This document shows, one piece after another, positions 2,009 to 18,180 of a stretch of 33,704 nucleotides of DNA. The DNA is taken from positions 1 to 33,704 of the forward strand of contig CACYCR010000125.1 of assembly GCA_902772935.1 (NCBI GenBank), read 5' to 3'. Every line of letters starts with the position of its first letter. The first letter of the stretch is position 1. Source of the stretch: Oscillospiraceae bacterium (GTDB taxonomy: Bacteria > Bacillota > Clostridia > Oscillospirales > Acutalibacteraceae). A model generated the notes under the pieces. It made no database searches, was not told where the DNA came from, and was given only the letters and a program-made list of their open reading frames with translations. A program made the position numbers and the translations under genes.

Positions 2009-2012
2009 TATA

Positions 2013-2101
2013 CACAATTTCTTTTTGGTACGTTTTCTTTGAAAAGAAAAAGGTTCGCCGCGCAGGCTTTTCTTTTCTAAAAGGGAAGAAAGTAAAAGAA
2101 A
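2013..2101 (-). repeat. Composite dispersed repeat, short copy 1
   Basis: Read on the minus strand, this begins GTTTTCTTTTACTTTC, passes an AT-rich palindrome (TTTTCTTTTCTAAAAG on plus) and the GC core GCCTGCGCGGCGAA (plus 2055-2067). It ends in a second palindrome (TTTTCTTTGAAAAGAAAA on plus) next to TTCTTTTTGGTAC. The same modules recur at 3555, 4511, 4744, 6264, 14201 and 18066. It lies between converging hydA and the PPC gene and may also act as a terminator for the minus-strand genes. Confidence 0.75.
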
Positions 2102-2105
2102 ACGG

Positions 2106-2528
2106 TCACCGGAAGGAGAACAGGTTTAAGCCGGTTGCATCGTCGTGTACGCGGGAGATCTTGCCGTCCAGCACCGTGATGAAAATCTCCGCTGTCGCAC
2201 CGATCACCGCCGACTTGAGATGGCCGCCGAATGCCGCACCTGCTTCGTTCGCCAACGTGATGTGCAAATGCAGATAACACGCATCATCCATCACGCTCAC
2301 ATTGCCCGTCAGATTCGTGATCTCCAAAAAGTCATTCAGCACCGTCTCGCTGTATGCCTTCGTCGCCGCGTCAAACAGGCCGATCGTCACGCCCTTTGCC
2401 GCACCGAGGCCCTGAATCATTCCGGCACGAACGCCGTATTCCCGGCAAACCGCCAGCAGAGACGCGCAGATCTCTTCGCCGCGTTCCAGCCGGACTGCGA
2501 TCGTATTTCCAAATCGTTTTGTTTCCAT
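2106..2528 (-). CDS. PPC-domain (DUF296) protein
   Basis: The product is 140 residues, the usual size of a stand-alone PPC/DUF296 domain. This fold occurs in plant AT-hook proteins and in many bacterial single-domain proteins of unsettled function. The signature is visible as HLHITLANEAGAAFGGHL, with clustered histidines and the glycine-rich GGHL turn, preceded by GLGAAKGVTIGLFD. It is cytoplasmic, with no signal peptide or membrane segment. AGGAGGG precedes the ATG. The gene begins 21 nt after the murI stop on the same strand, so the two are probably cotranscribed. I see no sequence basis for a specific role; DNA binding is annotated for some relatives but is not demonstrated by anything here. 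Confidence 0.85.
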   Translation of the reverse strand: METKRFGNTIAVRLERGEEICASLLAVCREYGVRAGMIQGLGAAKGVTIGLFDAATKAYSETVLNDFLEITNLTGNVSVMDDACYLHLHITLANEAGAAFGGHLKSAVIGATAEIFITVLDGKISRVHDDATGLNLFSFR

Positions 2529-2549
2529 AAAAAGTCCCTCCTGTATGGT

Positions 2550-3326
2550 TTAAATTTCAAAATCCATCAGCCGCTCCATCAGCGGCAGTTTTTCCGGATC
2601 ACTGTTTTCAAAGCGGATCACGCCCGGCGTCGTCTGCGGGTTCAAAAGTCCGCCGCGCTCCAGCAGCGTCCGCGTCTGCCGTGCCGCACCCTGCGCGCCG
2701 TCGTAAAACCGAACCTTGTCACCGAGCACTGCGCGCAGATCCCGCTGCAAAAACGGAAAATGCGTACAGCCCAGCACCACACAGTCGATTTCTTCTTTTT
2801 CATACGGGGCAAACAGTGCTGCCAGAACATCGCGCGCCTCCTGCGTCCCCATTTTGCCCTGCTCCACAAGCGGCACAAGCGCCGGAGCAGGCAGGGTAAT
2901 GATCCGGCAGGTGTCCGCAAAACGGCGGGTCAGCAGGGTGAATTTTTCTTCCTTGAGTGTCAGCGGCGTCGCCATCACCACCACGGTCGGGTACGTCGCA
3001 GACAGCGCGGCCGGTTTCAGCGCCGGCTCCAGTCCGACGATCGGCACATCCGGGTACCGTTCCCGCAGAGACGCGGCGGCGGCACTTGTCGCCGTGTTGC
3101 AGGCAAGGACGATCGCCTTTGCGCCCTGTGACAGCAGGCGCTCTGTTGCCGCCGTTGTCAGTGCGCGGATCTCTTCGGTCGGACGGACGCCGTAAGGCGC
3201 ATGGATCCCGTCGCCGAAATACAAAAAATCTTCGTGCGGCAGCTGGATGCGCAGCTGCTTGAGCACGCTGATGCCGCCCATGCCGGAATCGAAAACGCCG
3301 ACGGGCGAACAGGGATTGGTCTGCAT
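2550..3326 (-). CDS. murI: Glutamate racemase
   Basis: The enzyme converts L-glutamate to D-glutamate for peptidoglycan synthesis in the cytoplasm. I chose ATG 3326 because GGGAGG sits 8 nt upstream and the protein then opens directly into the family N-terminus (GVFDSGMGGISVL); an ATG 30 nt earlier lacks a site. The product is 258 residues, normal for MurI. The two catalytic cysteines are present in CNTATS (Cys76) and GCTHFP (Cys187), with Asp13 in VFDSG. One detail differs from most relatives: the loop usually read as YFGD[TS]xxxPYG is YFGDGIHAPYG here. The PPC gene follows closely. No clean sigma-A promoter was found upstream, but three TGACGCA repeats lie 74-126 nt before the start codon. 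Confidence 0.93.
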   Translation of the reverse strand: MQTNPCSPVGVFDSGMGGISVLKQLRIQLPHEDFLYFGDGIHAPYGVRPTEEIRALTTAATERLLSQGAKAIVLACNTATSAAAASLRERYPDVPIVGLEPALKPAALSATYPTVVVMATPLTLKEEKFTLLTRRFADTCRIITLPAPALVPLVEQGKMGTQEARDVLAALFAPYEKEEIDCVVLGCTHFPFLQRDLRAVLGDKVRFYDGAQGAARQTRTLLERGGLLNPQTTPGVIRFENSDPEKLPLMERLMDFEI

Positions 3327-3399
3327 AGAAAACACCTCCCGGTGCAGGGTAATCAAAATAAGTAAATCCGTTTACATCCGACCGGCATCCGGCACAGTC

Positions 3400-3471
3400 G
3401 TGACGCACACTTGACACAGTCCTGACGCAGTTATAACGGCGGTTGTGACGCACACCTGACTGCGACTTGAC
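3400..3471. promoter_or_regulatory. Direct-repeat array (TGACGCA), possible operator or iterons
   Basis: TGACGCA occurs at 3401, 3423 and 3446, spaced 22 and 23 nt, about two helical turns each. Two copies extend to GTGACGCACAC[CT]TGAC (3400-3415 and 3445-3460). The phasing suggests protein binding to one DNA face. It lies upstream of murI on one strand and of the winged-helix gene at 3988 on the other. Function is inference; no known regulator motif was recognised. The stretch 3472-3554 holds nothing recognisable. Confidence 0.35.
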
Positions 3472-3554
3472 GACACTATAAGAAAGAGAGAAAGAAATAC
3501 GAGATACGAGACACCTTTACGCGCGCGCGAAGCAAAAGCTAAAATCCCCGAAAA

Positions 3555-3833
3555 AACAGCAGCCGTTTCTTTTTGGGAGCGTTTTCTTTTCGGAAAAAGA
3601 AAAGTATTACCGTTTTGGTGACGTACAACGCACCCCGACACAAGTTCTTTTTGGTTCCTTTTCTTGTCAAGAAAAAGGAACGCCATACTTTTCTTTTCGG
3701 AAAAAGAAAAGTAAGCAAAAGAAAACTCGTGTATCGTTTCAAGGACGTACAACGCACCCCGACACAAGTTCTTTTTGGTTCCATTTCTTGCCAAGAAAAA
3801 GGAACGTATGCAAAAGAAAACTTGTGTCGCTGA
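3555..3833 (+). repeat. Tandem array of AT-rich palindromes (composite repeat array)
   Basis: Four palindromic cores follow one another: TTTTCTTTTCGGAAAAAGAAAA at 3582-3603, TTTTCTTGTCAAGAAAA at about 3659, a second TTTTCTTTTCGGAAAAAGAAAA (around 3690-3711), and TTTCTTGCCAAGAAA (around 3784). A unit of 124 bp is duplicated: 3621-3658 is identical to 3745-3782, covering ACGTACAACGCACCCCGACA and the following CAAGTTCTTTTTGGTTCC. Open frames read through it contain low-complexity Lys/Phe/Gln runs and are repeat artefacts. From 3834 to 3971 I see no gene or clear promoter. Confidence 0.8.
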
Positions 3834-3987
3834 CCGCTGCAAACAAAAAAGTTGCTGCCGTTTTCGTCGGCATTTGTCGCCGAGAAAAATATTTTCGTGA
3901 AATTTTGCAAAAAGTCGCGGAAATCCTGCAACAAATCGCCGTTTCCGCCCTTTTTATGGGGGGATCTTTTTTGGAGGTGCAAACAGC

Positions 3988-4482
3988 ATGAACCTGACAG
4001 AACCAAACGGTTGGATCAAACTGCCGCGCAATTTCCTTGACGACGGTGTCACCTGCGCAGATGCAGCGCATTTTCTGGTCTGGTGCGTTCTTCGCGCCAA
4101 AGCCGCATTTGCGGCACGGCAAGCCATGTGCTCCGGGCAGCTCGTTGACCTGCTGCCGGGCCAGCTCATCACAAGTTCACGTTCCATTGCATCGCTGACA
4201 CGGCTCAGTGAGTCCACCGTGCAGCGGATCCTGCGGGACTTTGTACAGGCGAAGCGCATCCGCCGCAAATGTTATGCGCACTGCAGCCTGATCACTGTCC
4301 TGTCGGAGGAAGCGCCCCGGCAGGCTGCACAGCAGACGCCGCCGGACAACCGAGCTGCGGCGCAGTACAGCACGGACAAAATCCGTACCAACCGGTACGC
4401 GCCGAAAGACAGCACATTCAGTGCCGACGCATCCTATGACCTTGAGGCGTACCGGCGCACAGCCATCGGGCTTTACGACTGA
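3988..4482 (+). CDS. Winged-helix protein resembling replication-initiator/DnaD-like N-terminal domains
   Basis: The product has 164 residues, with GGAGG 11 nt before the ATG. Residues 1-100 look like the winged-helix region of phage and plasmid replisome-organiser or DnaD-like proteins: an opening GWIKLPRNFLDD, an aromatic/alanine-rich helix (HFLVWCVLRAKAAF), then LLPGQLITSSRSIASLTRLS and STVQRILRDFVQAKRIRR, which reads as a helix-turn-helix plus recognition helix. The middle is polar and probably disordered. The C-terminus carries ASYDLEAYRR, a short motif I associate with similar small DNA-binding proteins on Clostridia mobile elements (recollection, not checked). It stands alone between repeat arrays. 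It could be a transcription regulator instead; no replication partner is adjacent. Confidence 0.6.
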   Translation: MNLTEPNGWIKLPRNFLDDGVTCADAAHFLVWCVLRAKAAFAARQAMCSGQLVDLLPGQLITSSRSIASLTRLSESTVQRILRDFVQAKRIRRKCYAHCSLITVLSEEAPRQAAQQTPPDNRAAAQYSTDKIRTNRYAPKDSTFSADASYDLEAYRRTAIGLYD

Positions 4483-4510
4483 CGCGAAAAGCTGACAGCA
4501 AAGGCGCATC

Positions 4511-4702
4511 AGGTTTTCTTTTGCTTCCTTTTCTTTTTCCGAAAAGAAAAGGAAGGCCTGCGCGGCGAGCGCAATATAATTCGGAATTCGGAATTCGGAA
4601 TTATGGTTGCGCTGTCAGTCGTAGCTGCTTGTATGTTTTCGCCGCGGAGAAAAGCGGGCGTTTGCGGTGAACGTGCAAATCGTATGCGCGTTGCGCCGCG
4701 TG
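4511..4702 (+). repeat. Composite dispersed repeat, long copy
   Basis: Modules in order: GTTTTCTTTTGCTTCC; the palindrome CCTTTTCTTTTTCCGAAAAG with its matching arm; the core GCCTGCGCGGCGAGCGCAA (4556-4574); three CGGAATT iterations; then GTTTTCGCCGCGGAG (4635-4649) and CAAATCGTATGCGCGTTGCG (4676-4695). The same order recurs at 6264 and 14201. Apart from this and the copy at 4744, the interval 4483-4799 holds no gene. Confidence 0.8.
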
Positions 4703-4743
4703 TTCTCGAAAACGTTATACAGCTATTCTTGCTTTATTTGTTA

Positions 4744-4797
4744 TGTTTCTGTACTTTTTCTTTTCAAAGAAAAAGTACCAAAAAGAAACTGTGCCGG
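4744..4797 (-). repeat. Composite dispersed repeat, palindrome-only copy after cysS
   Basis: The palindrome GTACTTTTTCTTT-TC-AAAGAAAAAGTAC is flanked by CCAAAAAGAAAC. It matches the palindrome and GTTTCTTTTTGG module of the other copies, read on minus. It lies directly after the cysS stop codon and could fold as a terminator of that gene. Confidence 0.7.
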
Positions 4798-4799
4798 GC

Positions 4800-6200
<1,401 letters not shown>

Positions 6201-6263
6201 GATATGGTGGCTCCTTTACAGAGTATTGTACAGATTGAGACGCAATAAGCGACAGAAAACAAT

Positions 6264-6497
6264 GTAACGTTTCAGGGACGCAAAACGCAGTCCGACACAA
6301 GTTCTTTTTGGTTCCTTTTTCTTGTCAAGAAAAAGGAACGCCTGCGCGGCGAGCGCAAGATAATAATTCGGAATTCGGAATGCGGAATGCGGAATTGCGG
6401 TCGCGGGGAACGTGATGGAATGGTTTATGTTTGCGCCGCAAAGGGAGGTGTGTGATGGCGGCATACGTGTAAATTGTATGCGCTGCGCGCCGCGGAG
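6264..6497 (+). repeat. Composite dispersed repeat, full-length copy
   Basis: This is the most complete copy. It contains ACGTTTCAGGGACGCAAAAC and CCGACACAAGTTCTTTTTGG, the palindrome TTCCTTTTTCTTGTCAAG with its matching arm, the core GCCTGCGCGGCGAGCGCAA (6340-6358), repeated CGGAATT/CGGAATG (6366-6396), TTTGCGCCGCAAAGGGAGG (6430-6448), and GTAAATTGTATGCGCTGCGC (6469-6488). It fills most of the gap between cysE and cysS. The remaining bases 6498-6588 show nothing recognisable. Confidence 0.85.
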
Positions 6498-6588
6498 GGA
6501 GGACTGTGCCGGTGGCGCCTTGCCGCCGGCAGTCACACGCATTGGTTTTTTTTGCAGAAAGGCGGCTGCGGAGGCCCGGTGGCCGCTG

Positions 6589-7290
6589 TCAGATGACCCA
6601 GAAGTTCTGCGTGTTCCACAGCTCTTTTTCTTCGTCGGATTTCCGCAGACGCGGGCAGGCGTTGGTGGCGTCCGCCAGCTCCTCTTCGAGCTGGTCCATC
6701 CGGCCGAGCAGCCCGGAGATGGCAAGCTCCACCGGGTCGGCAACGTGGATCTGGTCCAGGCGGTCGATGCGGATGCCGTCTTGCTTGACGATTTTTGCCG
6801 GGATGCCGACGGCGGTGCAGTTCGCCGGAATGTCCGAAAGGACGATCGAACCGGCGGCGACGTTGGAGTTATCCCCGATGATGAGCGGGCCGAGCACCTT
6901 GGCGCCCGCGCCGACGAGGACGTTGTTGCCGAGCGTCGGGTGGCGTTTGCCGGTGTCTTTGCCGGTACCGCCGAGCGTGACGCCCTGATACAGGATGCAG
7001 TCGTCGCCGATGACGGCGGTTTCGCCGATGACGACGCCGGTGCCGTGGTCGATGAAGAGCCGGCGGCCGATTTGTGCGCCGGGATGAATTTCAATGTTGG
7101 TTTTGTGTACGCAGCGCTGCGAGATCAGACGCGCAAAGAAAAACAAATGATGGACGAAGCACCAATGGGCGCGGCGGTACATCCGCACCGCACGGAAGCC
7201 CGGGTACAGAAGCAAAATTTCAAGCGTGCTGCGTGCCGCAGGATCGCGGTCCTTGATGCAGCGGATATCTTCTTTCAAACGGCTGAACAT
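6589..7290 (-). CDS. cysE: Serine O-acetyltransferase
   Basis: The enzyme makes O-acetyl-L-serine from serine and acetyl-CoA, the committed step of cysteine synthesis. ATG 7290 is chosen because AGGAGG lies 7 nt upstream and the protein begins in the family style (MFSRLKEDIRCIKDRDPAAR); an upstream reading would run through the T-box terminator. It has 233 residues. The C-terminal half is a left-handed beta-helix of hexapeptide repeats, with IDHGTGVVIGETAVIGDD, QGVTLGGTGK and the catalytic-type histidines of HPGAQIG and DHGTG. It resembles the short Gram-positive form lacking the long N-terminal helical domain of enteric CysE. The C-terminal tail (about 190-233) is acidic and helical. It is controlled by a cysteine-specific T-box. 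Confidence 0.95.
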   Translation of the reverse strand: MFSRLKEDIRCIKDRDPAARSTLEILLLYPGFRAVRMYRRAHWCFVHHLFFFARLISQRCVHKTNIEIHPGAQIGRRLFIDHGTGVVIGETAVIGDDCILYQGVTLGGTGKDTGKRHPTLGNNVLVGAGAKVLGPLIIGDNSNVAAGSIVLSDIPANCTAVGIPAKIVKQDGIRIDRLDQIHVADPVELAISGLLGRMDQLEEELADATNACPRLRKSDEEKELWNTQNFWVI

Positions 7291-7308
7291 GCAATCGCCT
7301 CCTATAAC

Positions 7309-7344
7309 AAAAAACGCCTCTGCAGCCAACGGGCAACAGAGGCG
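7309..7344 (-). terminator. T-box attenuator terminator of cysE
   Basis: On minus, CGCCTCTG (7337-7344) and CAGAGGCG (7315-7322) form an 8-bp stem followed by six T. It lies directly downstream of the T-box sequence and 18 nt before the cysE start, the expected position for the competing terminator. Confidence 0.9.
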
Positions 7345-7556
7345 TCGAAAACGCGGTTCCACTCTGATTTCTTACTTCGCGGCAAGGCCGCTTCTCCCTT
7401 AACGCGGGCTGTCGGCCGCAGATACTTTTGGTTCCCCGCGGCAGCTCGGGAGCGCACTTCGGTCTGCGTCCGGCAAGGTGCTTTCAGCACGCGGCACCTC
7501 TCTCTTGGCGTTCCGTCAGACGTACTCTTCTCCGTCAAAGCTTTTCAAATGTGTAC
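7309..7556 (-). promoter_or_regulatory. T-box riboswitch, cysteine specifier, controlling cysE
   Basis: The leader RNA starts near 7556 and ends at the attenuator before cysE. The antiterminator T-box sequence AGAGTGGAACCGCG is at 7352-7365 (minus). Stem I can be drawn: GGAG (7530-7533) pairs with CTCC (7449-7452) and GTCTG (7517-7521) pairs with CAGAC (7462-7466). They enclose a specifier loop with AGAGTAC on the 5' side and CGAAGTGCG on the 3' side. The codon there is TGC (7454-7456), cysteine. By family knowledge, uncharged tRNA-Cys pairs with this codon and with the T-box bulge, stabilises the antiterminator and allows cysE transcription when cysteine is scarce. Confidence 0.93.
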
Positions 7557-7562
7557 TGTTTC

Positions 7563-7591
7563 ATTATATCCGTTTTTGCGTCGGTTGTCAA
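7563..7591 (-). promoter_or_regulatory. Sigma-A promoter of the T-box/cysE transcript
   Basis: TTGACA (7586-7591) and TATAAT (7563-7568) are both perfect consensus boxes separated by 17 nt. The predicted start is about 7556. Confidence 0.92.
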
Positions 7592-7618
7592 CCGCTTTTG
7601 TATTTTTCCGAAAAGCGG

Positions 7619-7647
7619 TTGCAGTTGCAGCATAATGTTGGTATAAT
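7619..7647 (+). promoter_or_regulatory. Sigma-A promoter of the flavodoxin-hexosaminidase operon
   Basis: TTGCAG (7619-7624), a 17-nt spacer, then TATAAT (7642-7647), 32 nt before the gene start. It is divergent from the cysE promoter, with the two -35 boxes only 27 nt apart. Confidence 0.8.
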
Positions 7648-7679
7648 AAAGAAAAACCCGTTACGCAAAGGAGAAGACC

Positions 7680-8207
7680 ATGCGCATTATCCTGTATCAA
7701 AGCAGCACCGGCACCACCGAACGCTATGCGAAGCTGCTTGCCGAACGGACCGGCCTGCCGTGTCAGTCATTGGAAAAAACAACCGCGCCCACAGACGCCG
7801 AGGTGATTTTTCTCGGCTGGCTGATGGGCGACAGTCTGCAGGGACTGAAAAGCGTGAAGGCACGCTATGCAAATCTGATTGCCGTCGGCGCCGTGGGCCT
7901 GTTTTCCATGGAAAAGCCGCGCGCGGAGATGGAGGAGAAGATCGCCGCCGGCGCACCGCTGTTTCTGCTGCCGGGGAGCTTTGACCCGCACAGGATCAAG
8001 GGCATGACGCGCATACTGATCGGCATGACGCTCAAGGCGCTCAAAAGCAAGGTCGGCGACGGCGGCAATGAAAAGGAACGCGAAGCGCTGCGCTTTTTTG
8101 AGGAGGGCGTCGATGGATTTGACCCCGACGCGCTGCAGGAGCTGGAACGGTTTTTACGTGACGGTACGACGCAAGCGCAAACAAAGAAAGAGGAGGATCC
8201 GGTATGA
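7680..8207 (+). CDS. Flavodoxin-like FMN-binding protein
   Basis: The protein has 175 residues and opens with the flavodoxin phosphate-binding loop: a first beta strand (MRIILYQ), then SSTGTTERYAKLLAE, where the T/S-x-T-G-x-T pattern holds the FMN phosphate. The second strand region EVIFLGWLMGDSL and the third LIAVGAVGLFSM fit the alternating flavodoxin fold. Relatives include flavodoxins and the flavodoxin domain of protoporphyrinogen-oxidase-like proteins, but the partner cannot be told from sequence. AAAGGAG precedes the ATG. Its last codons overlap the next start by four bases (ATGA), so translation of the hexosaminidase is coupled. Why an electron carrier is paired with a glycosidase is unclear. 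Confidence 0.78.
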   Translation: MRIILYQSSTGTTERYAKLLAERTGLPCQSLEKTTAPTDAEVIFLGWLMGDSLQGLKSVKARYANLIAVGAVGLFSMEKPRAEMEEKIAAGAPLFLLPGSFDPHRIKGMTRILIGMTLKALKSKVGDGGNEKEREALRFFEEGVDGFDPDALQELERFLRDGTTQAQTKKEEDPV

Positions 8208-9643: not shown

Positions 9644-9670
9644 CGCGGCGCAAAGGCATTCCCGCAATAA

Positions 9671-9703
9671 AAAATGAGCAAGGTTGTCCCTTGCTCATTT
9701 TTG
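9671..9703. terminator. Bidirectional terminator between converging genes
   Basis: AAAATGAGCAAGG pairs with CCTTGCTCATTTT around a short TTGTC loop, with A-rich and T-rich flanks. It serves the hexosaminidase on plus and the phosphoesterase on minus. Confidence 0.88.
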
Positions 9704-9715
9704 GTGTTTTGAACA

Positions 9716-10690: not shown

Positions 10691-10716
10691 GAGAAATCGC
10701 CTCCTGTTTTTCTTTT

Positions 10717-10745
10717 ATTATAGCATGCCGGACACATCGTTGCAA
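10717..10745 (-). promoter_or_regulatory. Sigma-A promoter of the metallophosphoesterase
   Basis: TTGCAA (10740-10745), 17-nt spacer, TATAAT (10717-10722), 27 nt before the start codon. Confidence 0.75.
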
Positions 10746-10871
10746 GCCTTTTTCGCAATGCTGCGTTCGGGTTTTTCCAACCGGCGGACGAATGTCGACT
10801 TTTTGGCGAACCTGCTGTATCGGCAGCTTGATTTTTGTACGCGAAACCGGGTGCTGTTCCCTGCGTGCCGC

Positions 10872-10900
10872 TTGACAAGCGGACAAAAAAATGATAAGAT
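10872..10900 (+). promoter_or_regulatory. Sigma-A promoter of the leucine-rich-repeat gene
   Basis: TTGACA (10872-10877), 17-nt spacer, TAAGAT (10895-10900), 36 nt before the ATG. Confidence 0.82.
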
Positions 10901-10935
10901 ACATTATGAAGAAATCTTGAATGGAGGTTTTTCGA

Positions 10936-12981
10936 ATGAAACATAAAAAATATGCATTGTTTCTGCTCACATTCGTTTTGCTGCTTGCGTTGACGGCAAC
11001 GGGTGCTTTTGCGGCAGTTCCGCAAAGAGGCACCTGCGGCGACGGCGTCAACTGGGCGCTGTCCGAAGCGGGCATCCTGACCATTTCCGGCAACGGTGCA
11101 ATCACAGCGCCGGAAAACTATACGAGCTTTGTCAATGAGATCGTCGGCGTCAAGATCGAAGAAGGCGTCACCGCCATCAGCGACAGAGGCTTCTACGGTC
11201 TGTCCAAGCTGCGCGCTGTTGTTGCGGACAAGGACGTTGTGTCCATCGGCAAGGAAGCGTTTGCCGGCTGCACCGCACTGGAAGCGATCGACCTCGGTGA
11301 AAACCTGACCACGATCGGCGAACGCGCGTTCTACGGCTGCAGCGGTCTATATTCCAAAATGGACCTGAGCAAGACCAAGGTCACCGAGATTCCGAAGGAA
11401 GCGTTCCGTGACTGCTCCGGTCTGTTCAACCTGACCCTTTCCGATTCGATAACCAGCATCGGCGAAGGCGCGTTCTACGGCTGCCGCAACCTGAAGAATC
11501 TGGTGATGCCGGCGTCGCTGACATCCATCGGCGTGAACGCGTTTGCGGGTACCGATAAACTCGGCACCGTTGACTTCAGCAAGGCGACCGGTATGACCGC
11601 AATCCCTGCATCTGCGTTTGTTGCCAGCGAAGGACTTGAAAAGGTCTGGCTGCATGAAAACATCACCGCCATCGGCGAAAAAGCGTTCAAGGGCTGCATC
11701 AATCTCAACGAGATCAACCTTGCGCCGGAAGAGCCGGGAGAAGGCACGGAAACAGAACCGGCAGAAGATACCGGTCTGCCGTCCGTTCCGGTCATCTCCG
11801 ATCTGAGCGGGATCACATCCATCGGCGCGTATGCGTTTGAGAACTGCCGCAGCCTGCCGGCTGTGCGGCTTTCGGACAGCATCACCCGGATTGAAGAAGG
11901 TACGTTCAAAAACTGCTTCATGCTCAGCGAGATCAATCTGCCCGCCGGCCTGACAAAGATCGGCGCGGATGCGTTCAACGGTACCGCAAAGCTTGTGAAG
12001 TTCATGACCACGGCGGAAATGAACCGTACGACGGAAGAACGCGCGCTTGCAGCCGCGATCCTCAGCGCGAAGGAAGACCTGAAGAAGGAAGCCAGAGGCG
12101 GCGGCCCGAAGACGAAGGCAGCGCTCGCAGCCGCGATCACGGCGGTTGAAGCAGCGACGGACGCCAAAACGCTTGAAACCGCGAAGACCAAAGGCATTGA
12201 GAGCATCAAAGCCGCAAAGAAAGAAGAACCCGCGGGTCTGCTGGATACCGTGACCGGTCTGCTGAACCCGGAGACCGTCATTCCCGATGTGATGGCCCTG
12301 CCAGCGAACTATAAAGCAATCGACGACTATGCCTTCCGCGGCATGGACGGTCTTGCCGGCTGCAACCTGCCCGCAGGTGTGACCTCGATCGGCAAATACG
12401 CTTTTGCGGAATGCGGCTCGCTGGATTACATCGGCCTGCCGGCGTCGCTGAATCATCTCGGCGAAGCGGCGTTCCTCGGCGACAGCATGCTTTCGACAAT
12501 CTCCTTTGCAGAAGGCATTGCGCTGCAGTCCATCGACGCGAACGCGTTCAACGGCTGCACGGCGCTGCTGTCGGTGACACTGCCGAACGGCCTGTCCACC
12601 ATCGGTAAGAGAGCGTTCTACGGCTGCACCGGTCTGTACGCGGTGTCGGTGCCCGCGTCGATCGCAACAATCGGCGAAGCGGCGTTTAACGGCTGCTCCA
12701 ATCTGCAGGTGGTTGTTTACAACGGTACGCAGGAAGGCTGGGAGAACGTGCTGCGCAATTCCGGCGGTTACAACCAGCCGCTGAATGACGCGACGAAAAA
12801 GTGCCTGCAGGAACCGAACGCAAACGATGATGGCGCAGACATCACCGGCTTTGCGAAGTTCTTCAAAAAGCTCATTAACACCATCAAGAGCAAGCTTGAC
12901 AGCATCAAGAAGGTTCTTCTGAACATCATCACCGGTAAGGGCGTCGGCGACTTCTTCTATCAGCGTCCGAAAGATTATTAA
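10936..12981 (+). CDS. Secreted BspA-like leucine-rich-repeat protein with helical insert and C-terminal amphipathic tail
   Basis: The protein has 681 residues; ATG 10936 follows GGAGG at 8 nt. A signal peptide covers about 1-24 (cut near GAFA-AVPQ). A module CGDGVNWALSEAGILTISGN precedes BspA/LRR_5-type repeats of about 23 residues with the pattern I.. AF.GC..L..v.lp....sIG. Repeats run about 50-350 and again about 460-600. Between them lies an Ala/Lys/Glu-rich helical stretch (about 356-440) resembling small three-helix wall-protein modules. The C-terminus has FFKKLINTIKSKLD followed by a second cationic helix, like the tails of two other secreted proteins in this window. By family analogy it is a surface adhesin or binding protein. 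No LPXTG or SLH domain is present. Confidence 0.88.
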   Translation: MKHKKYALFLLTFVLLLALTATGAFAAVPQRGTCGDGVNWALSEAGILTISGNGAITAPENYTSFVNEIVGVKIEEGVTAISDRGFYGLSKLRAVVADKDVVSIGKEAFAGCTALEAIDLGENLTTIGERAFYGCSGLYSKMDLSKTKVTEIPKEAFRDCSGLFNLTLSDSITSIGEGAFYGCRNLKNLVMPASLTSIGVNAFAGTDKLGTVDFSKATGMTAIPASAFVASEGLEKVWLHENITAIGEKAFKGCINLNEINLAPEEPGEGTETEPAEDTGLPSVPVISDLSGITSIGAYAFENCRSLPAVRLSDSITRIEEGTFKNCFMLSEINLPAGLTKIGADAFNGTAKLVKFMTTAEMNRTTEERALAAAILSAKEDLKKEARGGGPKTKAALAAAITAVEAATDAKTLETAKTKGIESIKAAKKEEPAGLLDTVTGLLNPETVIPDVMALPANYKAIDDYAFRGMDGLAGCNLPAGVTSIGKYAFAECGSLDYIGLPASLNHLGEAAFLGDSMLSTISFAEGIALQSIDANAFNGCTALLSVTLPNGLSTIGKRAFYGCTGLYAVSVPASIATIGEAAFNGCSNLQVVVYNGTQEGWENVLRNSGGYNQPLNDATKKCLQEPNANDDGADITGFAKFFKKLINTIKSKLDSIKKVLLNIITGKGVGDFFYQRPKDY

Positions 12982-12996
12982 TTGTCAGAAGAAACC

Positions 12997-13030
12997 GCAA
13001 TGCCGCAGATTCTGCGGCATTGCCGAATTT
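12997..13030 (+). terminator. Hairpin after the leucine-rich-repeat gene
   Basis: GCAATGCCGCAG pairs with CTGCGGCATTGC in a 12-bp stem with a 3-nt loop. The following CGAATTT is a poor T tract, so termination may be partial and the next gene could be read through. Confidence 0.6.
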
Positions 13031-13049
13031 GTATACGCGGAGGGATTCC

Positions 13050-13586
13050 ATGATCGACCAAGTCGAAAAGAAACTGCAGGAACTGAAACAGCAGCAGCGC
13101 GAAGAGTATTATCGCCGGAAGGCGGCAGACCTGACCCAGTGGGGTCTTGTCTCGCAGAAAAAGGGCAAGAAGAATGCCGCGCCGATCGTTGTAACGGATG
13201 AAGAATATGACGCGCTGATTGATGCGTCGAATGGCGTTGGAATGCCGACGCGCAACGGCTATGCCAAGGCATTGAACATTGCCGCGGTGGCCATGCTGAC
13301 GCTGGGTATCATTGTCGGCTTTGTTGTGGCAAGCTTTGCGGACAGTCTGGAATATGTCTGGTTCATTGCAAGCGTCCTGGTCGGTGCGATCTTTTCTGTG
13401 ATTCTCTTCGGCCTTTCCGAAGCGGTGCGGCTGCTGCAGCAGCTTGTGGATATGGAGCGTGCGGATCGCGCGAAGAAATCGAGCGAGATCCTCAAGGAGT
13501 TCCCGGACGAACAGCCGGATGTGACGGCACGGTTCACCGAAACGGAATTTGCGGAAGCGCCCCAGCATCCGTATAACAATCCTTAA
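13050..13586 (+). CDS. Two-helix membrane protein of unknown function
   Basis: The protein has 178 residues. ATG 13050 has GGAGGG 6 nt upstream; an earlier in-frame start would lie inside the preceding hairpin. Residues 1-35 are a charged, probably coiled-coil helix (MIDQVEKKLQELKQQQREE). Two membrane segments follow at about 73-95 (ALNIAAVAMLTLGIIVGFVV) and 101-121 (VWFIASVLVGAIFSVILFGL), then an amphipathic helix EAVRLLQQLVDMERADRAKK and an acidic, probably disordered tail. Both ends should be cytoplasmic. I do not recognise the family. It lies between two hairpins, so it is probably weakly linked to the LRR gene by read-through. Confidence 0.75.
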   Translation: MIDQVEKKLQELKQQQREEYYRRKAADLTQWGLVSQKKGKKNAAPIVVTDEEYDALIDASNGVGMPTRNGYAKALNIAAVAMLTLGIIVGFVVASFADSLEYVWFIASVLVGAIFSVILFGLSEAVRLLQQLVDMERADRAKKSSEILKEFPDEQPDVTARFTETEFAEAPQHPYNNP

Positions 13587-13593
13587 ACATGCA

Positions 13594-13624
13594 AGCGCCG
13601 GGGGATGGCCCCGGCGCTTTTTTT
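13594..13624 (+). terminator. Strong Rho-independent terminator
   Basis: AGCGCCGGGG pairs with CCCCGGCGCT around GATGG and is followed by seven T. It lies just upstream of the uracil-DNA glycosylase ribosome binding site, so that gene must have a promoter overlapping here or receive read-through; no clear promoter was found. Confidence 0.88.
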
Positions 13625-13642
13625 CTGAAGGGAGACGGCAAA

Positions 13643-14200
13643 ATGGAACACGATCTTGCCGCGTTGGAGCGTGCGTGCGGACAATGTGAGCAATGTCCGC
13701 TTTGTACGGGACGGACGAATCTTGTGTTTGGTACGGGCGTACCGGACGCAAAAATCATGTTTGTCGGCGAGGGCCCGGGCATGCAGGAAGATTTGCAGGG
13801 CAAGCCGTTCGTCGGCAAGAGCGGGCAATTATTGGATCAATATTTGTCACTGATTGATCTTGACCGGGAGAAGAACATTTACATTGCGAATATGGTGAAA
13901 TGTCGGCCGCCGCAGAACCGGGACCCGAAGCCGGAGGAGACGGAAGCGTGTTTGCCGTGGCTGCGCAGTCAGGTGAAGCTGATCCGGCCGCAGTTGATTG
14001 TGTGTCTGGGCCGCATTGCGGCGCAGCGGCTGATTTCGCCGGATTTTCGGGTGACGAAGCAGCACGGGGAAATGATTGCGAAAGGGCAGATGACGTTTAT
14101 GGGGACGTTTCACCCGGCGGCGCTGCTGCGCAACCCGGCGCAGAAAGCGGATGCCCTGGCGGACTTTCAAAAGATCCGCGCATGGATGCGCGAACACTAA
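13643..14200 (+). CDS. Uracil-DNA glycosylase, [4Fe-4S] family-4 type
   Basis: The enzyme removes uracil from DNA to start base-excision repair. The product has 185 residues from ATG 13643, preceded by AAGGGAG. Family blocks are present: MFVGEGPGMQEDLQGKPFVG (uracil-binding and water-activating region), NMVKCRPPQNRDP, IVCLGRIAAQ and the C-terminal TFHPAALLRNP, equivalent to the DNA-intercalation loop. The cluster cysteines appear in the N-terminal CGQCEQCPLC, in VKCRPP and in EACLPWL. The N-terminal group holds four cysteines (12, 15, 18, 21), more than the two needed, so which pair binds iron is uncertain. A dispersed repeat begins directly after the stop. Confidence 0.92.
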   Translation: MEHDLAALERACGQCEQCPLCTGRTNLVFGTGVPDAKIMFVGEGPGMQEDLQGKPFVGKSGQLLDQYLSLIDLDREKNIYIANMVKCRPPQNRDPKPEETEACLPWLRSQVKLIRPQLIVCLGRIAAQRLISPDFRVTKQHGEMIAKGQMTFMGTFHPAALLRNPAQKADALADFQKIRAWMREH

Positions 14201-14462
14201 CTTTTCTTTTGGAAAGGAAAAGTTAGCAAAAGAAAACCGGTGTACCGTTTCAGGGACGAACAGCGCAACTCGCTACAGGTTCTTTTTGGATACTTTTTCT
14301 TGCCAGGAAAAAGTATCGCCTGCGCGGCGAGCGCAAATGAAATTCGGAATTCGGAATTGATGTCGCGACGAAGGTCTGCGGCATCTTTTTTGTTTGCGCC
14401 GCGAAAGGAAGAGGGCGGCAGCGGTAACCGCCGTAAATTGTATGCGCAAGCGCGCCGCTGAA
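14201..14462 (+). repeat. Composite dispersed repeat, full-length copy
   Basis: In order: the palindrome ACTTTTCTTTTGGAAAGGAAAAGT, the segment CCGTTTCAGGGACGAACAGC, GTTCTTTTTGG, the palindrome TACTTTTTCTTGCCAGGAAA with its arm, the core GCCTGCGCGGCGAGCGCAA (14318-14336), CGGAATTCGGAATT, TTTGCGCCGCGAAAGGAAG (14393-14411), and GTAAATTGTATGCGC (14433-14447). It runs from the uracil-DNA glycosylase stop almost to the stop of the converging SH3 gene. Confidence 0.85.
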
Positions 14463-14468
14463 ACGGTG

Positions 14469-15566
14469 TTATGGATTGCTGAAGATGTCCGGATCGTCAA
14501 AGGCGTCCAGATCCGCAAACGGATCCGGTATGTCCGTATCCGGCGCTGCTTCACCGCCGTACGGATCGGGGGCGTCAAAACCCTCGTACCCGGTAAACGC
14601 GTCAGACGTCTCCGCACCTGCATCGTCGTAAACCGGCGGCGTATCATACGGCGGCAGATCCGTGCCGTTCATGTCGTCGTATCCATTGTTCGGATCATAG
14701 TTGCCCATGTTCGGGTCGGTCGGGTCGGTCGGCGTCTCCTTTTTGCGCTTCACGATCAGAAGAACCACCACCGCCGTCAGCGCCAAAATCACCGCGCAAA
14801 GGCAGCAGACCACGATCACGGTCTTCGTGTCGCTGAAAAAGCCGATCGGCTGATCCCGGTTTTTATCGCTTTCCGTCGGGAGGGTGTCGGTCGTGGGTAC
14901 CGTTGCAATCGCGGCCGTCGTGTCGGCGACGGTGCTTTCACTCGTTGGCTGTGTGGTGGTCTCGGTTGTGGTTTCCGTCGTCGGAACAACCTTCTCTGTG
15001 TAGTCAATCGCGCACCAGCCGGACGTGCCCTTATAGGACGTGTAGCCCCAGGTGTAGCCGCCGTACGCATAGGTGTACTGATAAGTCAGCTGCGTGTTCT
15101 TCGGAATGGTGCGGTACGATTTATACGTCCGCGCCGGACCCTGCCGCAGAATCACACCGACGTCCGGGGTAACCACAGCGGTCACTTCGTCATCCAGCAT
15201 TTTTCCGGTTTCCTTCTGCACGACTTTGTTTTCGCTGAGAAAGCTCCTGTCGAGATCGCTGCTCGGCAGGTATACAAACGAATCAATTTTCGCCGCTTCT
15301 TTTTGGCTGTCCTCCAGAATCAGCCGATACGCGCCGTCCGACTCAATGTATTCAAACACCATGAAGCGGATGCCCGGCTCAATATGGCCGCGGTAAGTCC
15401 TCGGTTCGCCCATGATGTCGCTTTCCGTATAGGAATAGTCGTAGCCGCGCGGACCGCAGACAACGTACCAGTCGTCAAATTCCGGCTCGCCGAGGTCGGC
15501 GAAGGCTGTGACGGACAGACCGAGCAGTAAAACCAGCGTGAGAAGAATCGCTGTGCATTTTTTCAT
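14469..15566 (-). CDS. SH3-domain membrane protein with acidic cytoplasmic tail (paralogue A)
   Basis: The protein has 365 residues. A signal peptide covers 1-23 (MKKCTAILLTLVLLLGLSVT, cut after AFA). An N-terminal region of about 100 residues (DWYVVCGPRGYDYSY...) is shared with the next gene. A bacterial SH3-like domain (about 130-190) carries VGVILRQGPARTYKSYRTIP and GWCAIDY. A Thr/Ser/Pro-rich stalk (about 195-235) leads to one membrane segment near 249-272 (VVCCLCAVILALTAVVVLLI) followed by KRKKE. The final 90 residues are very rich in Asp, Pro, Tyr and Gly (YDPNNGYDDMNG, DPFADLDAFDDPD). By the positive-inside rule the SH3 domain is outside and the tail inside. AAAGGAGG precedes the ATG, 31 nt after the paralogue's stop. 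Confidence 0.82.
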   Translation of the reverse strand: MKKCTAILLTLVLLLGLSVTAFADLGEPEFDDWYVVCGPRGYDYSYTESDIMGEPRTYRGHIEPGIRFMVFEYIESDGAYRLILEDSQKEAAKIDSFVYLPSSDLDRSFLSENKVVQKETGKMLDDEVTAVVTPDVGVILRQGPARTYKSYRTIPKNTQLTYQYTYAYGGYTWGYTSYKGTSGWCAIDYTEKVVPTTETTTETTTQPTSESTVADTTAAIATVPTTDTLPTESDKNRDQPIGFFSDTKTVIVVCCLCAVILALTAVVVLLIVKRKKETPTDPTDPNMGNYDPNNGYDDMNGTDLPPYDTPPVYDDAGAETSDAFTGYEGFDAPDPYGGEAAPDTDIPDPFADLDAFDDPDIFSNP

Positions 15567-15597
15567 GGGAAGACCTCCTTTTGCCTCTTCGGGTACG

Positions 15598-16452
15598 TTA
15601 CCCGTTCTTTTTCCGTTTCACAATCAGTAAAATCACCGTCGCCGAAAGCGCCAGCGCCACCGCGCAAAGGCAGCAGACCACGACCACCGTCTTTGTGTTG
15701 CTGAAAAAGCCGTCCGCCGCGTCTGCGGGTTCGTCAGGCTCCGCCGGGGCGGTGCTCGTTTTGGGTGCCGCCGTAGTAGTGGTTGTTATCATGAACGTCG
15801 TGCTGTTTACAGTTGTTTCGGTCGTTGTCGGCGCTGTTGTCGTTGTGGCTTCAGTCGTTGTCGGGGCTGTTGTTGTGACCGGTGCCGTGTAATCAATGCA
15901 GACCCAGCCGTTTGTGCCTTTGTAGGTCGTGTACGCCCAGTTGCGGCCGCCGTAGGCGAGGGTGTACTGATAGGTCAGCTTTGTTCCCTTCGGCACCGTG
16001 CGGAAGGACGGATAGGTCGTTGCCGGACCCTGCCGCAAAATGACGCCGACGTCCGGGGTGACCGTACAATCGACCGGTCTGGACAGCTTTGTGCCGTTTT
16101 CGGCGCGCACTGCCTTTTTTTCACCGACGAAATACTTGTTCAGCTGCGCTTCGGTGACATAAACAAAGCCGCTCCCCTTGGTTTCGTGATGGTCGTCATC
16201 GACCACAAGCAGATACGTCTTTTCGGTGCTGTCGTAGCTGTGGACGCGGAGCTTTGTACCGGGTTCAAGGAAATCGTGCAGATCGGTGTTCTCGTCGATC
16301 CCGTAATACGGTTGGTCGACAAAGGCATAGCCGGCGGTGCCGCAGCGGACGTACCAGTCTTCGAAATCGCCTTCGTCGAGATCGGCGAACGCGGCGAACT
16401 GCAGCGCGAACAGCAGCATCAGTATGAGTGCAAGCGCGGTACATTTTTTCAT
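15598..16452 (-). CDS. SH3-domain membrane protein without tail (paralogue B)
   Basis: The protein has 284 residues. ATG 16452 has GGAGAG 6 nt upstream, and the start matches the paralogue (MKKCTA). It shares signal peptide, N-terminal domain (DWYVRCGTAGYAFVDQPYYG), SH3-like domain (VGVILRQGPATTYPSFRTVP, GWVCIDY), a Thr-rich stalk of repeated TTTEATTTTAPTTTETT type, and a near-identical membrane segment (VVCCLCAVALALSATVILLI). It ends at KRKKNG, so it lacks the acidic tail of its neighbour. The pair arose by tandem duplication. Extracellular SH3-like domains often bind peptidoglycan; that is a family inference. It is fourth in a five-gene minus-strand set. Confidence 0.8.
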   Translation of the reverse strand: MKKCTALALILMLLFALQFAAFADLDEGDFEDWYVRCGTAGYAFVDQPYYGIDENTDLHDFLEPGTKLRVHSYDSTEKTYLLVVDDDHHETKGSGFVYVTEAQLNKYFVGEKKAVRAENGTKLSRPVDCTVTPDVGVILRQGPATTYPSFRTVPKGTKLTYQYTLAYGGRNWAYTTYKGTNGWVCIDYTAPVTTTAPTTTEATTTTAPTTTETTVNSTTFMITTTTTAAPKTSTAPAEPDEPADAADGFFSNTKTVVVVCCLCAVALALSATVILLIVKRKKNG

Positions 16453-16463
16453 GGCAATCTCTC

Positions 16464-16829
16464 CTATCGTAAAAGATCTATGAGTTTCAGGATCCCGCTG
16501 CCGAGCAGGTAGGATCCTGCGTTTAACACCAGGGAAAACAGATACGGGTTTTGCCGCAGGGTCAGGGTGCTTTTGAACAGCCGCCCTTCGGCAAAGACGA
16601 TGAGGATCTCGAGCGGCACCAGAAACCAGAAGTACGCCGCCGGGGAGATGTAAAAGGAAACCACCGTCAGAATCGCGTTGAGCAGCGGGTTCGTGATGAC
16701 GTTCACCAACAGAACTACGCCCTGCCCGTACCACGCGCGCACACCGAGCAGAAACGCAAGCGCCGCCTCCAGAACGATTGTCAGCGCCAGCGCGGTCAGC
16801 ATGCTGAAAAAGACGCGCTCAAAGATCAT
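16464..16829 (-). CDS. Four-helix membrane protein of unknown function
   Basis: The protein has 121 residues from ATG 16829; a TTG 21 nt earlier is possible but has no better ribosome site. It is almost entirely hydrophobic, with about four membrane segments: SMLTALALTIVLEAALAFLL, VVLLVNVITNPLLNAILTVV, AAYFWFLVPLEILIVFAE and a C-terminal LFSLVLNAGSYLLGSGIL. The block LLVNVITNPLLN is distinctive, but I cannot assign it to a named family. Its first codons overlap the end of the 46-residue gene by 11 nt, and paralogue B starts 11 nt after its stop, so tight co-expression is expected. Substrate or partner is unknown. Confidence 0.72.
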   Translation of the reverse strand: MIFERVFFSMLTALALTIVLEAALAFLLGVRAWYGQGVVLLVNVITNPLLNAILTVVSFYISPAAYFWFLVPLEILIVFAEGRLFKSTLTLRQNPYLFSLVLNAGSYLLGSGILKLIDLLR

Positions 16830-16959
16830 GACGGATCTCGTGGACCGCAAATGCGATCGTCAGCGCTGCAATTACGACAAAGAGTACCGCAAGGGCAAAC
16901 AGCGGCGTTTTGATATGATTGAGCAGCGCGGAGTTGATGAGTTCATACCAGTCGTTCAT
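16819..16959 (-). CDS. 46-residue single-pass membrane peptide
   Basis: The reading frame begins ATG 16959 with AAAGG at 9 nt and encodes MNDWYELINSALLNHIKTP, then one hydrophobic helix (LFALAVLFVVIAALTIAFAV) and HEIRHDL. An alternative ATG at 16967 would add three residues. It overlaps the MFS gene end by 17 nt and the next membrane gene start by 11 nt, as expected for a real gene in a compact operon. Single-pass peptides of this size often act as accessory subunits of a neighbouring transporter; that is inference. It is too short for most automatic gene calls. Confidence 0.62.
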   Translation of the reverse strand: MNDWYELINSALLNHIKTPLFALAVLFVVIAALTIAFAVHEIRHDL

Positions 16960-18025
16960 GGGGTTCATCCTTTCTGATCGAGATCAACATACAGGCGAGG
17001 CAGACGATGGTCAACACCGAGAGCATGATGCAGTTTGCCGCAAGACCGGTGATTTTGACAAAGCACACCGGCACGACGCCAAGGAACAGACCGATCGTTG
17101 TGAAGCCGAACGCAAGCCCCGGCGCTTTCGGCAGCACCGAAACAAGAACTGCGAGCGTGACGGACATGGTCATGCTGAAGAACATGACGCCGACAAGGGA
17201 AACGATCATGTGGTTGTCGCCGAAGAGCAGAAACGGCAGTGCCGCCGCGATGCTGCCGAGCGCCAGCTTTTTCACGCCGAAAAGGTCGGCCAGAACGCCG
17301 CCGAGCGCTTTGCCGACGCCCATGAAGGTGAAGAGCAGAATGGTCTGCAGTGTTGTTTTTCGCCAGGAGATCGGGATGCCGTAGGCCATATAGCCGCGCA
17401 CGATGACGACGATCACCGACAGCAGGATGATGAGTCCCTTGCCGATTTTCGGGTTGTGATAGCGGAAGGCGCGGCAGGGGACAGCGTCGTAGGCTGCGGC
17501 GCTGTCTTTGAGGTACATTTGCGCGAGGATCGCAAACGGAACGGCCGAGACGACCAGAATCAGCAACAGCCAGTACGGCGTACCCGCTGCGGCAAGCAGT
17601 TTGCCCGTCACGACGCCGAACGAGCCGCCGGAGACAAAGATTGCGCTGTGCGAAAGGCTGCCGTTTGCGGTGCGCAGGGTCACCTCTGCGCCGTTCACAT
17701 GGGTGAAGGCGTTGCCGATACAGACGACCGTGAGGGACAAAAACGGCCACGGCGTATGCGCCTGCAGAACCAGTGCTGCGCCGAGCAGGACAAGGCCGGC
17801 CACGCCGAAGGAGCATTTTTTGCATTTGTCGCTGAGGTACCCGAACAGGCTTTGTGGTGTGAAGGCCAGCAGGTCGTAGGCGAAGGAAATCAGCCATGCG
17901 ACGGGGGCGCTTTCCGTATAGCGTGCCAGCACGAAGAAGCAGACCACTTCCGTGACAAAATGGACATAAAAATACAAAAAGCCCGTGCCGAGGTTTTGGG
18001 TGTTGAAGGGTTTCGGTTTCGTCAT
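16943..18025 (-). CDS. Major facilitator superfamily transporter
   Basis: The protein has 360 residues with about 10-12 hydrophobic helices, fitting the MFS fold on the short side. The loop after helix 2 contains GYLSDKCKKCSF, a variant of the G-x-L-a-D-r-x-g-r-k motif, and its equivalent in the second half is GGVLADLFGVKKL. The amphipathic start MTKPKPFNTQNLGTG is cytoplasmic. The substrate is unknown. The start has only a weak site (GAAAGTGG). It is the first gene of a set of five minus-strand genes that overlap or lie within 31 nt of each other. No promoter was recognised between it and the dispersed repeat upstream. Confidence 0.85.
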   Translation of the reverse strand: MTKPKPFNTQNLGTGFLYFYVHFVTEVVCFFVLARYTESAPVAWLISFAYDLLAFTPQSLFGYLSDKCKKCSFGVAGLVLLGAALVLQAHTPWPFLSLTVVCIGNAFTHVNGAEVTLRTANGSLSHSAIFVSGGSFGVVTGKLLAAAGTPYWLLLILVVSAVPFAILAQMYLKDSAAAYDAVPCRAFRYHNPKIGKGLIILLSVIVVIVRGYMAYGIPISWRKTTLQTILLFTFMGVGKALGGVLADLFGVKKLALGSIAAALPFLLFGDNHMIVSLVGVMFFSMTMSVTLAVLVSVLPKAPGLAFGFTTIGLFLGVVPVCFVKITGLAANCIMLSVLTIVCLACMLISIRKDEPHERLV

Positions 18026-18065
18026 ACTTGAACCACTTTCTGTAAAAATGTTTGGCAGCGAAAAA

Positions 18066-18180
18066 GATACAGGTTTTCTTTTGCTTACTTTTCTTTTTTC
18101 GAAAAGAAAAGTAAGGCCCGCGCGGCGAGCGCAAGAAAAATGCGGAATGATGGTCGCGGACGCTCATACGCCGTAGACGC
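18066..18180 (+). repeat. Composite dispersed repeat, partial copy
   Basis: It begins ACAGGTTTTCTTTTGCTTAC, followed by the palindrome CTTTTCTTTTTTCGAAAAGA with its arm and the core GCCCGCGCGGCGAGCGCAA (18116-18134), one mismatch from the other copies. TGCGGAATG and GGTCGCG follow, after which similarity fades. The rest of the interval to 18312 shows no gene. Confidence 0.8.

What the first reader, a model, noticed from the sequence alone, without database searches (positions are those of the whole stretch)
2013..18180. Composite dispersed repeat family in at least six intergenic sites
The same ordered modules recur at 2013, 3555, 4511, 4744, 6264, 14201 and 18066: GTTTTCTTTTGC or GTTCTTTTTGG, an AT-rich palindrome (CTTTTCTTTTTCCGAAAAG type), the core GCCTGCGCGGCGAGCGCAA (exact at 4556, 6340 and 14318; one mismatch at 18116), CGGAATT iterations, TTTGCGCCGC[AG]AAGG and GTAAATTGTATGCGC. 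Some copies are full (6264, 14201, 4511) and some truncated (4744, 18066). None encodes a transposase. The palindrome arms vary together (TTCC/GGAA, TACT/AGTA), which suggests selection for folding as RNA or DNA. It may be a non-autonomous element, a REP-like element or a mobile terminator.
Basis: seen in the sequence. Interest (0 to 1): 0.7.

Follow-up and report, generated by a model that had tools for sequence, protein, structure and literature searches.

The report
Stop-codon-hugging mosaic palindromic repeat family
Dozens of copies of a modular, hairpin-forming DNA repeat sit between genes of this bacterium, and related repeats occur in many other bacteria, often right after a gene ends; it looks like a little-described branch of the known REP class of bacterial repeats, with no obvious enzyme to move it.

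Summary
The core occurs 4 times in the window (0.06 expected), and tag+palindrome 48 times in the genome against 0 in the reversed control. A unit is a T-rich tag ending TTTTG[G/C], an AT-rich palindrome with covarying arms and a GC-rich core; units combine, BIME-like, with a spacer, heptamer iterations and sometimes an intrinsic-terminator hairpin. The 6264 copy splits cysE-cysS, where 14 of 14 congeners read have a short gap. Some relatives carry species-specific versions with the same tag. The core recurs 82 and 32 times in two Flavonifractor genomes, 27, 21 and 5 in termite-gut MAGs and 3-6 in three alphaproteobacterial MAGs; of 41 such sites examined, 29 lie within 35 nt of a stop codon, against 3 of 36 on the other side. 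No RAYT-type transposase was found in this genome or several carriers. Verdict: a REP/BIME-like family with a new tag, probably mobile and non-autonomous, partly acting as terminator or 3'-end structure. Mobilising enzyme and function are not shown.

The parts
2010..2103 (+). degenerate head-to-head pair: tag TTTCTTTTTGG + palindrome (+), core-like stretch in reverse, second unit on - strand ending at about 2103
3566..3830 (.). array of several units in both orientations joined by the spacer ...ACGTACAACGCACCCCGACACAAG; no full core
4507..4574 (+). unit: tag GTTTTCTTTTGC, palindrome 4524-4555, core 4556-4574
4576..4700 (+). heptamer iterations (4576-4604), weak terminator-like hairpin (4604-4627), diverged tail module
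4745..4790 (-). core-less unit (tag + palindrome 4751-4778), close to the 3' end of cysS (4800)
6295..6358 (+). unit: tag GTTCTTTTTGG, palindrome 6311-6339, core 6340-6358; antisense between cysE and cysS
6361..6490 (+). heptamer iterations, degenerate terminator module (about 6398-6432), TTTGCGCCGCAAAGG and GTAAATTGTATGCGC tails
14197..14240 (-). inverted unit (palindrome 14197-14226, then GCAAAAGAAAAC on the + strand), overlapping the stop codon of the preceding gene
14241..14272 (+). spacer between the inverted pair
14273..14336 (+). unit: tag, palindrome 14289-14317, core 14318-14336
14341..14450 (+). heptamer iterations, intact terminator module (hairpin from 14359 with U-run), TTTGCGCCGCGAAAGG and GTAAATTGTATGCGC tails
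18067..18134 (+). unit: tag GTTTTCTTTTGC, palindrome 18084-18115, core 18116-18134; no intact terminator module behind it

Best explanation
A REP/BIME-like family of short non-autonomous repeats. The unit is a T-rich tag (TTTTTGG or CTTTTGC), an AT-rich palindrome directly behind it, and usually a GC-rich core that can form a small hairpin or compact pseudoknot. Units occur singly, as inverted pairs and as short arrays, and pick up passenger modules (spacer, 7-bp iterations, an intrinsic terminator). Shown: copy number, anatomy, covariation, intergenic placement in the window, an occupied site against short gaps in congeners, species-specific versions with one tag in several genomes of the order. 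Inferred: copies spread by an enzyme acting in trans that recognises tag and hairpin, perhaps as single strands, and that is lost or unrecognised here; insertions survive mainly near stop codons, where they fold in RNA or DNA and, when they carry the terminator module, end transcription.
For: 48 tag+palindrome hits in this genome against 0 control, 68 in G003 (0), 44 in G029 (0), 40 in G036 (1). Same tag, different palindrome per species. Arms: 98.6% of cells paired, 6 of 13 pairs changed on both sides, 41 such cells against 14.4 in shuffles and 0-2 when slid. Inverted pairs and a 139-bp tandem array on C81. cysE-cysS: about 388 bp in G000 against at most about 65 nt in 14 of 14 congeners read. 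No unit in the 150 nt after the uracil-DNA glycosylase gene in 9 of 9 congeners, nor in the loci around the gene at 18025 in 2 of 2, though neighbouring genes differ there. Stop-codon proximity 29 of 41 in other carriers; tag-side proximity in G000 14 of 43. Terminator module: -16.6 kcal/mol at 14359.
Against: No transposase tied to the units: RAYT-like proteins occur in some carriers and in genomes with few units, and 1 of 20 such loci had a unit nearby. No target duplication or precise end was seen. The side that faces the stop codon differs: core side in Flavonifractor, termite and alphaproteobacterial genomes, tag side in G000. In 24 order-level loci with genes on both sides the core-side gene ends towards the unit in only 10, so the placement is not general.
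Confidence: 0.62

Rival explanations
1. RAYT-mobilised REP/REPIN family: a Y1 tyrosine transposase recognises the tag and hairpin.
For: Tagged palindromes in inverted pairs are the REPIN plan. Divergent RAYT-like proteins (3 scanned: 58.2, 58.5 and 64.0 bits to NF047646, below its cut-off 80) exist in the genus; alignment A2 matches 27 of 53 genomes at E<=0.001 (some weakly, as IS200 types), including carriers G003, G028, G036 (with one TAG), G083, G268 and G720-G722.
Against: None in G000 (84% complete), G029 (98%), G046 (99%), G291 (99%), G488 (100%), G117 (90%) or the two Flavonifractor genomes, all carriers. Present in congeners with few units (G001, G010, G012, G013, G017, G019, G020). 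One of 20 such loci had a unit nearby. The tag is neither GTAG nor CGTC.
Confidence: 0.15
2. A transcription terminator or 3'-end processing element multiplied by duplication and kept by selection; not a mobile element.
For: Core side behind stop codons in 29 of 41 sites against 3 of 36 on the other side and 3-4% of random positions. Good terminator hairpins (-13 kcal/mol or better, at least 6 U of 8) in 8 of 23 regions printed. Each of the 4 cores of the window scores terminator-like on the reverse strand, among 58 such sites where 24.7 are expected.
Against: Alphaproteobacterial copies keep the hairpins but the ones printed have no U-run next to them. In G000 the other end more often faces the stop codon. 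The copy inside cysE-cysS is antisense and its terminator is degenerate. Near-identical copies in G003 look like spread.
Confidence: 0.2
3. MITE derived from an insertion sequence with terminal inverted repeats.
For: Inverted outer ends ACACAAG...CTTGTGT in tag-core-inverted-tag composites.
Against: Single units and core-less units are also common and modules shuffle. No search for an insertion sequence with these ends was possible beyond the Y1 families.
Confidence: 0.05
4. Chance low-complexity similarity in AT-rich spacers.
For: Palindromes are T- and A-rich.
Against: Controls of 0 against 48 and the GC-rich exact core.
Confidence: 0.01

Closest known systems
REP / BIME repeats, GTAG-tagged super-family (Di Nocera et al. 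2013, PMC3733652; abstract, passages and sections 6 and 15 read)
   Same: Short tagged palindromes, many copies, species-specific stems, inverted dimers, intergenic, mostly at 3' ends of ORFs.
   Different: Tag is TTTTG[G/C]; AT-rich stem; GC-rich core behind the stem; no RAYT found in this genome.
CGTC-tagged REPs (same paper)
   Same: No dedicated transposase, close to ORF 3' ends (<20 bp in the examples of the paper), mainly alphaproteobacteria, inverted dimers.
   Different: CGTC tag and 8-9 bp stems there; here stems of about 13-15 bp, AT-rich. The alphaproteobacterial copies found here share only the core and the hairpin plan; whether any is a CGTC REP was not tested.
REPIN/RAYT systems (PMC3116915, PMC2817692; search listing only)
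   Same: Inverted pairs of tagged hairpins with a spacer.
   Different: No linked RAYT shown.
Short heptanucleotide tandem repeats of cyanobacteria (STRR; recalled, no call)
   Same: 7-bp iterations next to intergenic repeats.
   Different: Only a passenger module here.

Membership tests
REP/BIME | many copies per genome, intergenic | tested here: met
   48 hits against 0 control; 7 of 7 window sites intergenic by my gene call, one overlapping a stop codon; copies outside the window were not all checked
REP/BIME | imperfect palindrome with a conserved unpaired tag at one end | tested here: met
   23 aligned units of this genome: four T of the tag invariant, hairpin 98.6% paired
REP/BIME (GTAG or CGTC super-family) | tag is GTAG or CGTC | tested here: not met
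   the letters in front of the palindrome are TTTTG[G/C]
REP/BIME | inverted dimers separated by spacers | tested here: met
   C81, C171, C69, window 3566-3830 and 14197-14336
REPIN/RAYT | RAYT gene in the same genome | tested here: not met
   0 in G000 by PF01797 and by alignment A2; the genome is 84% complete
REPIN/RAYT | RAYT gene flanked by the repeats | tested here: inconclusive
   1 of 20 Y1/RAYT-type loci of related genomes had a unit, 608 bp away; species-specific stems could have been missed by the pattern used
MITE | target-site duplication and clean ends | tested here: inconclusive
   short-gap sites found but congeners are too distant to place the ends
intrinsic terminator | GC-rich hairpin followed at once by a U-run | tested here: met
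   only for the terminator module of some copies, intact at 14359; not for the unit itself
Rfam RNA families | match to a described family | tested here: not met
   only the T-box at 7335-7547 in the window; one microRNA match far below its gathering score in 16 related loci

The most novel reading that the evidence does not exclude
The core with its neighbouring hairpins is a conserved structured RNA (small hairpins, possibly an H-type pseudoknot) that sits just behind stop codons in Clostridia and Alphaproteobacteria, affects the 3' end or translation of the upstream mRNA, and has become the passenger or driver of a transposase-less repeat family.
Probability: 0.2. Interest if true: 0.8.

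Novelty: new variant of a known kind. Interest (0 to 1): 0.58.

Why it matters
The REP survey read here (PMC3733652) places tagged REPs mainly in gamma- and alphaproteobacteria under two tags. This family adds a third tag in Clostridia, including a Flavonifractor genome (An92) whose record title carries no MAG label and which could be tested. Carriers that are 98-100% complete and lack a detectable RAYT sharpen the open question of how transposase-less REPs spread. The stop-codon placement shared with alphaproteobacteria suggests a common 3'-end role that Term-seq could test directly.

Tried and rejected
Chance and low complexity: rejected by controls. Rfam: no family. Phage vector: a long tag+palindrome pattern and a 33-mer from the Flavonifractor/alphaproteobacterial element gave 0 in viral contigs; the 19-mer core gave 4 viral contigs, not examined. 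Plasmids: 159 records with weak matches (E limit 10), 38 covering at least 80% of the query, read as chance. RAYT: first tested with PF01797, which proved insensitive to this branch, then with alignment A2 (15 of the 20 ORFs; five left out, one shortened at its start).

Pseudoknot: of 29 order-level loci only 6 fitted my core rule, about 5 of them convincing (0.8% of shuffles). The permutation test (43 of 50 cells paired against a mean of 29; outer pair 9 of 10) used 10 hand-picked representatives, two from one genome, so it is suggestive only; the two G003 types pair only 3 of 5. The second small hairpin of Flavonifractor and alphaproteobacteria (61 of 64 cells against a mean of 39) was parsed by hand, and one row (L330) may be misparsed. 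Gene orientation used a crude longest-ORF rule: the core-side gene ends towards the unit in 15 of 21 (G000), 10 of 24 (order loci), 35 of 45 (Flavonifractor and termite) and 15 of 24 (pattern loci), so there is no bias in the order loci. R1 scored at most 18 candidates per genome. Literature: exact oligos gave five off-topic papers by title and none; topic searches listed no description of this family; the library lacks most subscription papers.
Full report
WHAT IS THERE. The window is contig C125 of a 2.44-Mb draft genome in 190 contigs, 84% complete. The core GCCTGCGCGGCGAGCGCAA is exact at 4556, 6340 and 14318 and has one mismatch at 18116; 100 shuffles gave a mean of 0.06 matches. Palindromes of 13-15 bp stand directly in front of each of the four cores and at further places. 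The seven sites are intergenic by a simple codon-based gene call, one overlapping a stop codon. In the whole genome there are 58 blastn matches to the 6264 copy, the query and antisense palindrome matches included, 11 exact 15-mer cores against 0 in the reversed control, and 48 hits of tag+palindrome against 0.

ANATOMY. Reading the copies gives one unit: tag (A1 GTTCTTTTTGG, A2 GTTTTCTTTTGC, or TTTCTTTTTGG), a palindrome at once behind it, then usually the core. A1 and A2 also stand head to head around the core, and such composites repeat with a spacer (ACCGTTTCAGGGACGAACAACGCACCCCGACACAAG); on C81 the period is 139 bp. Instead of the inverted unit, the core may be followed by 7-bp iterations (TCGGAAT or TGGAAAA types) and a module GCGGTCGCGAC-GAAA-GTTGCGGCTGC-TTTTTTG. 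In 23 units with a core (22 distinct) the 13-bp stem is 98.6% paired; 6 of 13 pairs changed on both sides, 41 cells against 14.4 in shuffles, and 0-2 when the partner is slid. Template-switch correction of palindromes could produce the same pattern without selection for folding.

TERMINATOR MODULE. Of 23 regions printed behind cores or core-like matches, some of which are not this module, 8 fold at -13 kcal/mol or better with at least 6 U of 8 behind the stem; at 14359 the hairpin has -16.6 kcal/mol, z -2.98. It is weak behind 4556, 6340 and 18116. The 6340 copy lies antisense between cysE and cysS, where an intact terminator that also works in reverse could block the operon; this fits selection against it but is one case.

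INSERTION-TYPE DIFFERENCE. Between cysE and cysS this genome has about 388 bp. Of 25 congener loci fetched with cysS I printed 15; a cysS start was found in 14, and in all 14 cysE runs to within about 65 nt of it, leaving no room for a unit. The fifteenth, G020, has cysE on another contig. No unit lies in the 150 nt after the uracil-DNA glycosylase gene in 9 of 9 congeners (one locus has a unit elsewhere), nor in the loci around the gene at 18025 in 2 of 2; gene order beyond these genes differs, so these are weaker.

RELATIVES. With the pattern TTTTGSNNNCTTTTN{3,16}AAAAG, 7 of 39 genomes, this one included, reach 10 or more hits (48 here, G003 68, G029 44, G036 40, G028 19, G015 18, G014 10), with controls of 0-1 per strand; several others have 4-7, among them identical copies in G005 and G006, and the rest are near background. 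The tag is constant while the stem is species-specific. In 398 genomes of the phylum most counts are background; G046 (14 against 1), G488 (8 against 1) and G579 (17 against 0; its sequences were not seen) stand out, while a few others have 5-8 hits, those listed being dissimilar to each other. A covariance model of the units matched 41 of 295 genomes of the order at E<=0.01; many of the best matches show tag+palindrome without the core, three of them just in front of what looks like 5S rRNA. In the G003 copies fetched, a tail of about 130 bp is constant and the left modules vary.

THE CORE BEYOND THE GENUS. GCCNGCGCGGCGAGCGC counts, all with controls 0+0: Candidatus Flavonifractor merdigallinarum 82, Flavonifractor An92 32, termite-gut Oscillospiraceae MAGs 27, 21 and 5, alphaproteobacterial MAGs 6, 3 and 6, one Bacteroidales MAG 1. 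These nine genomes were chosen because the core had been found in them. In the termite genomes tag, palindrome and core stand together; in Flavonifractor and the alphaproteobacteria another small hairpin with compensating 4-bp stems stands between palindrome and core. I examined 41 distinct sites of the 182 counted in the eight Flavonifractor, termite and alphaproteobacterial genomes: the core side lies within 35 nt of the stop codon of an ORF of at least 140 aa in 12 of 16 (termite), 11 of 15 (Flavonifractor) and 6 of 10 (alphaproteobacteria); the far side in 2 of 15, 0 of 11 and 1 of 10; random positions 3-4%. In this genome the tag side does so in 14 of 43 and the far side in 2 of 40, so the side differs between groups; order-level loci show no bias.

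MOBILISING ENZYME. PF01797 finds nothing in this genome. A divergent RAYT-like branch exists in the genus; an alignment of 15 of its members finds 27 of 53 genomes at E<=0.001 but not this genome, nor G029, G046, G117, G291, G488, G716, G718, G723 or G724, all carriers of units or cores; it finds several congeners with few units, and it finds carriers such as G003, G028, G083, G268 and G720-G722. One of 20 such loci had a unit nearby. A RAYT is therefore not shown to be needed, though a past one cannot be excluded. Other transposase families were not searched.

COMPARISON. Di Nocera et al. 2013 (PMC3733652; abstract, passages and sections 6 and 15 read) define GTAG and CGTC REPs, report that REPs lie mainly downstream of coding regions and that CGTC REPs lack a dedicated transposase. 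RepRanger (PMC12306157; passages read) cites ribosome stalling by REPs within 15 nt of a stop codon. The family here shares the plan and the placement but has another tag, an AT-rich stem and a GC-rich core, so it works like a REP without meeting the tag or RAYT criteria. No description of it was listed.

VERDICT. A REP/BIME-like, probably mobile non-autonomous family, a new variant of a known kind. The function is most likely a 3'-end structure, with true termination only where the terminator module is intact.

Noticed in passing
window 18351-18597: Another dispersed repeat of about 246 bp: ten further matches in this genome (C84, C140, C76, C74, C103, C127, C190, C94, C91, C186) at 82-95% identity and several in congener G020.
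   Followed up: no
window 7335-7547 (-): T-box leader in front of cysE-cysS, the gene pair split by the 6264 copy.
   Followed up: partly
L006, L011, L016, L024; similar short stretch at window 6508-6540: A GC-rich dispersed palindrome (GTGCCGGTGGCGCC type) next to several copies.
   Followed up: no
L028, L029, L027, L013, L004 (C137, C181, C171, C81): The A2 tag is sometimes followed by an unrelated module TGCGGAAATCTGACC... instead of the AT-rich palindrome.
   Followed up: no
G001, G010, G016, G714 and others, matches to window 6362-6407: The 7-bp TCGGAAT iterations occur in many congeners, including G001, G010 and G016, which have 0-1 tag+palindrome hits.
   Followed up: no
L175, L178, L185: Tag+palindrome units just upstream of 5S rRNA in three genomes of the order (5S identified by eye).
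   Followed up: no
L394-L413: A divergent RAYT-like Y1 transposase branch; many members score near or below the cut-off of PF01797, and 3 of 3 scanned fall below that of NF047646.
   Followed up: partly
L097 (Bacteroidales MAG RGIG6747): One full tag-palindrome-core unit in a MAG labelled Bacteroidales; could be transfer or binning error.
   Followed up: no
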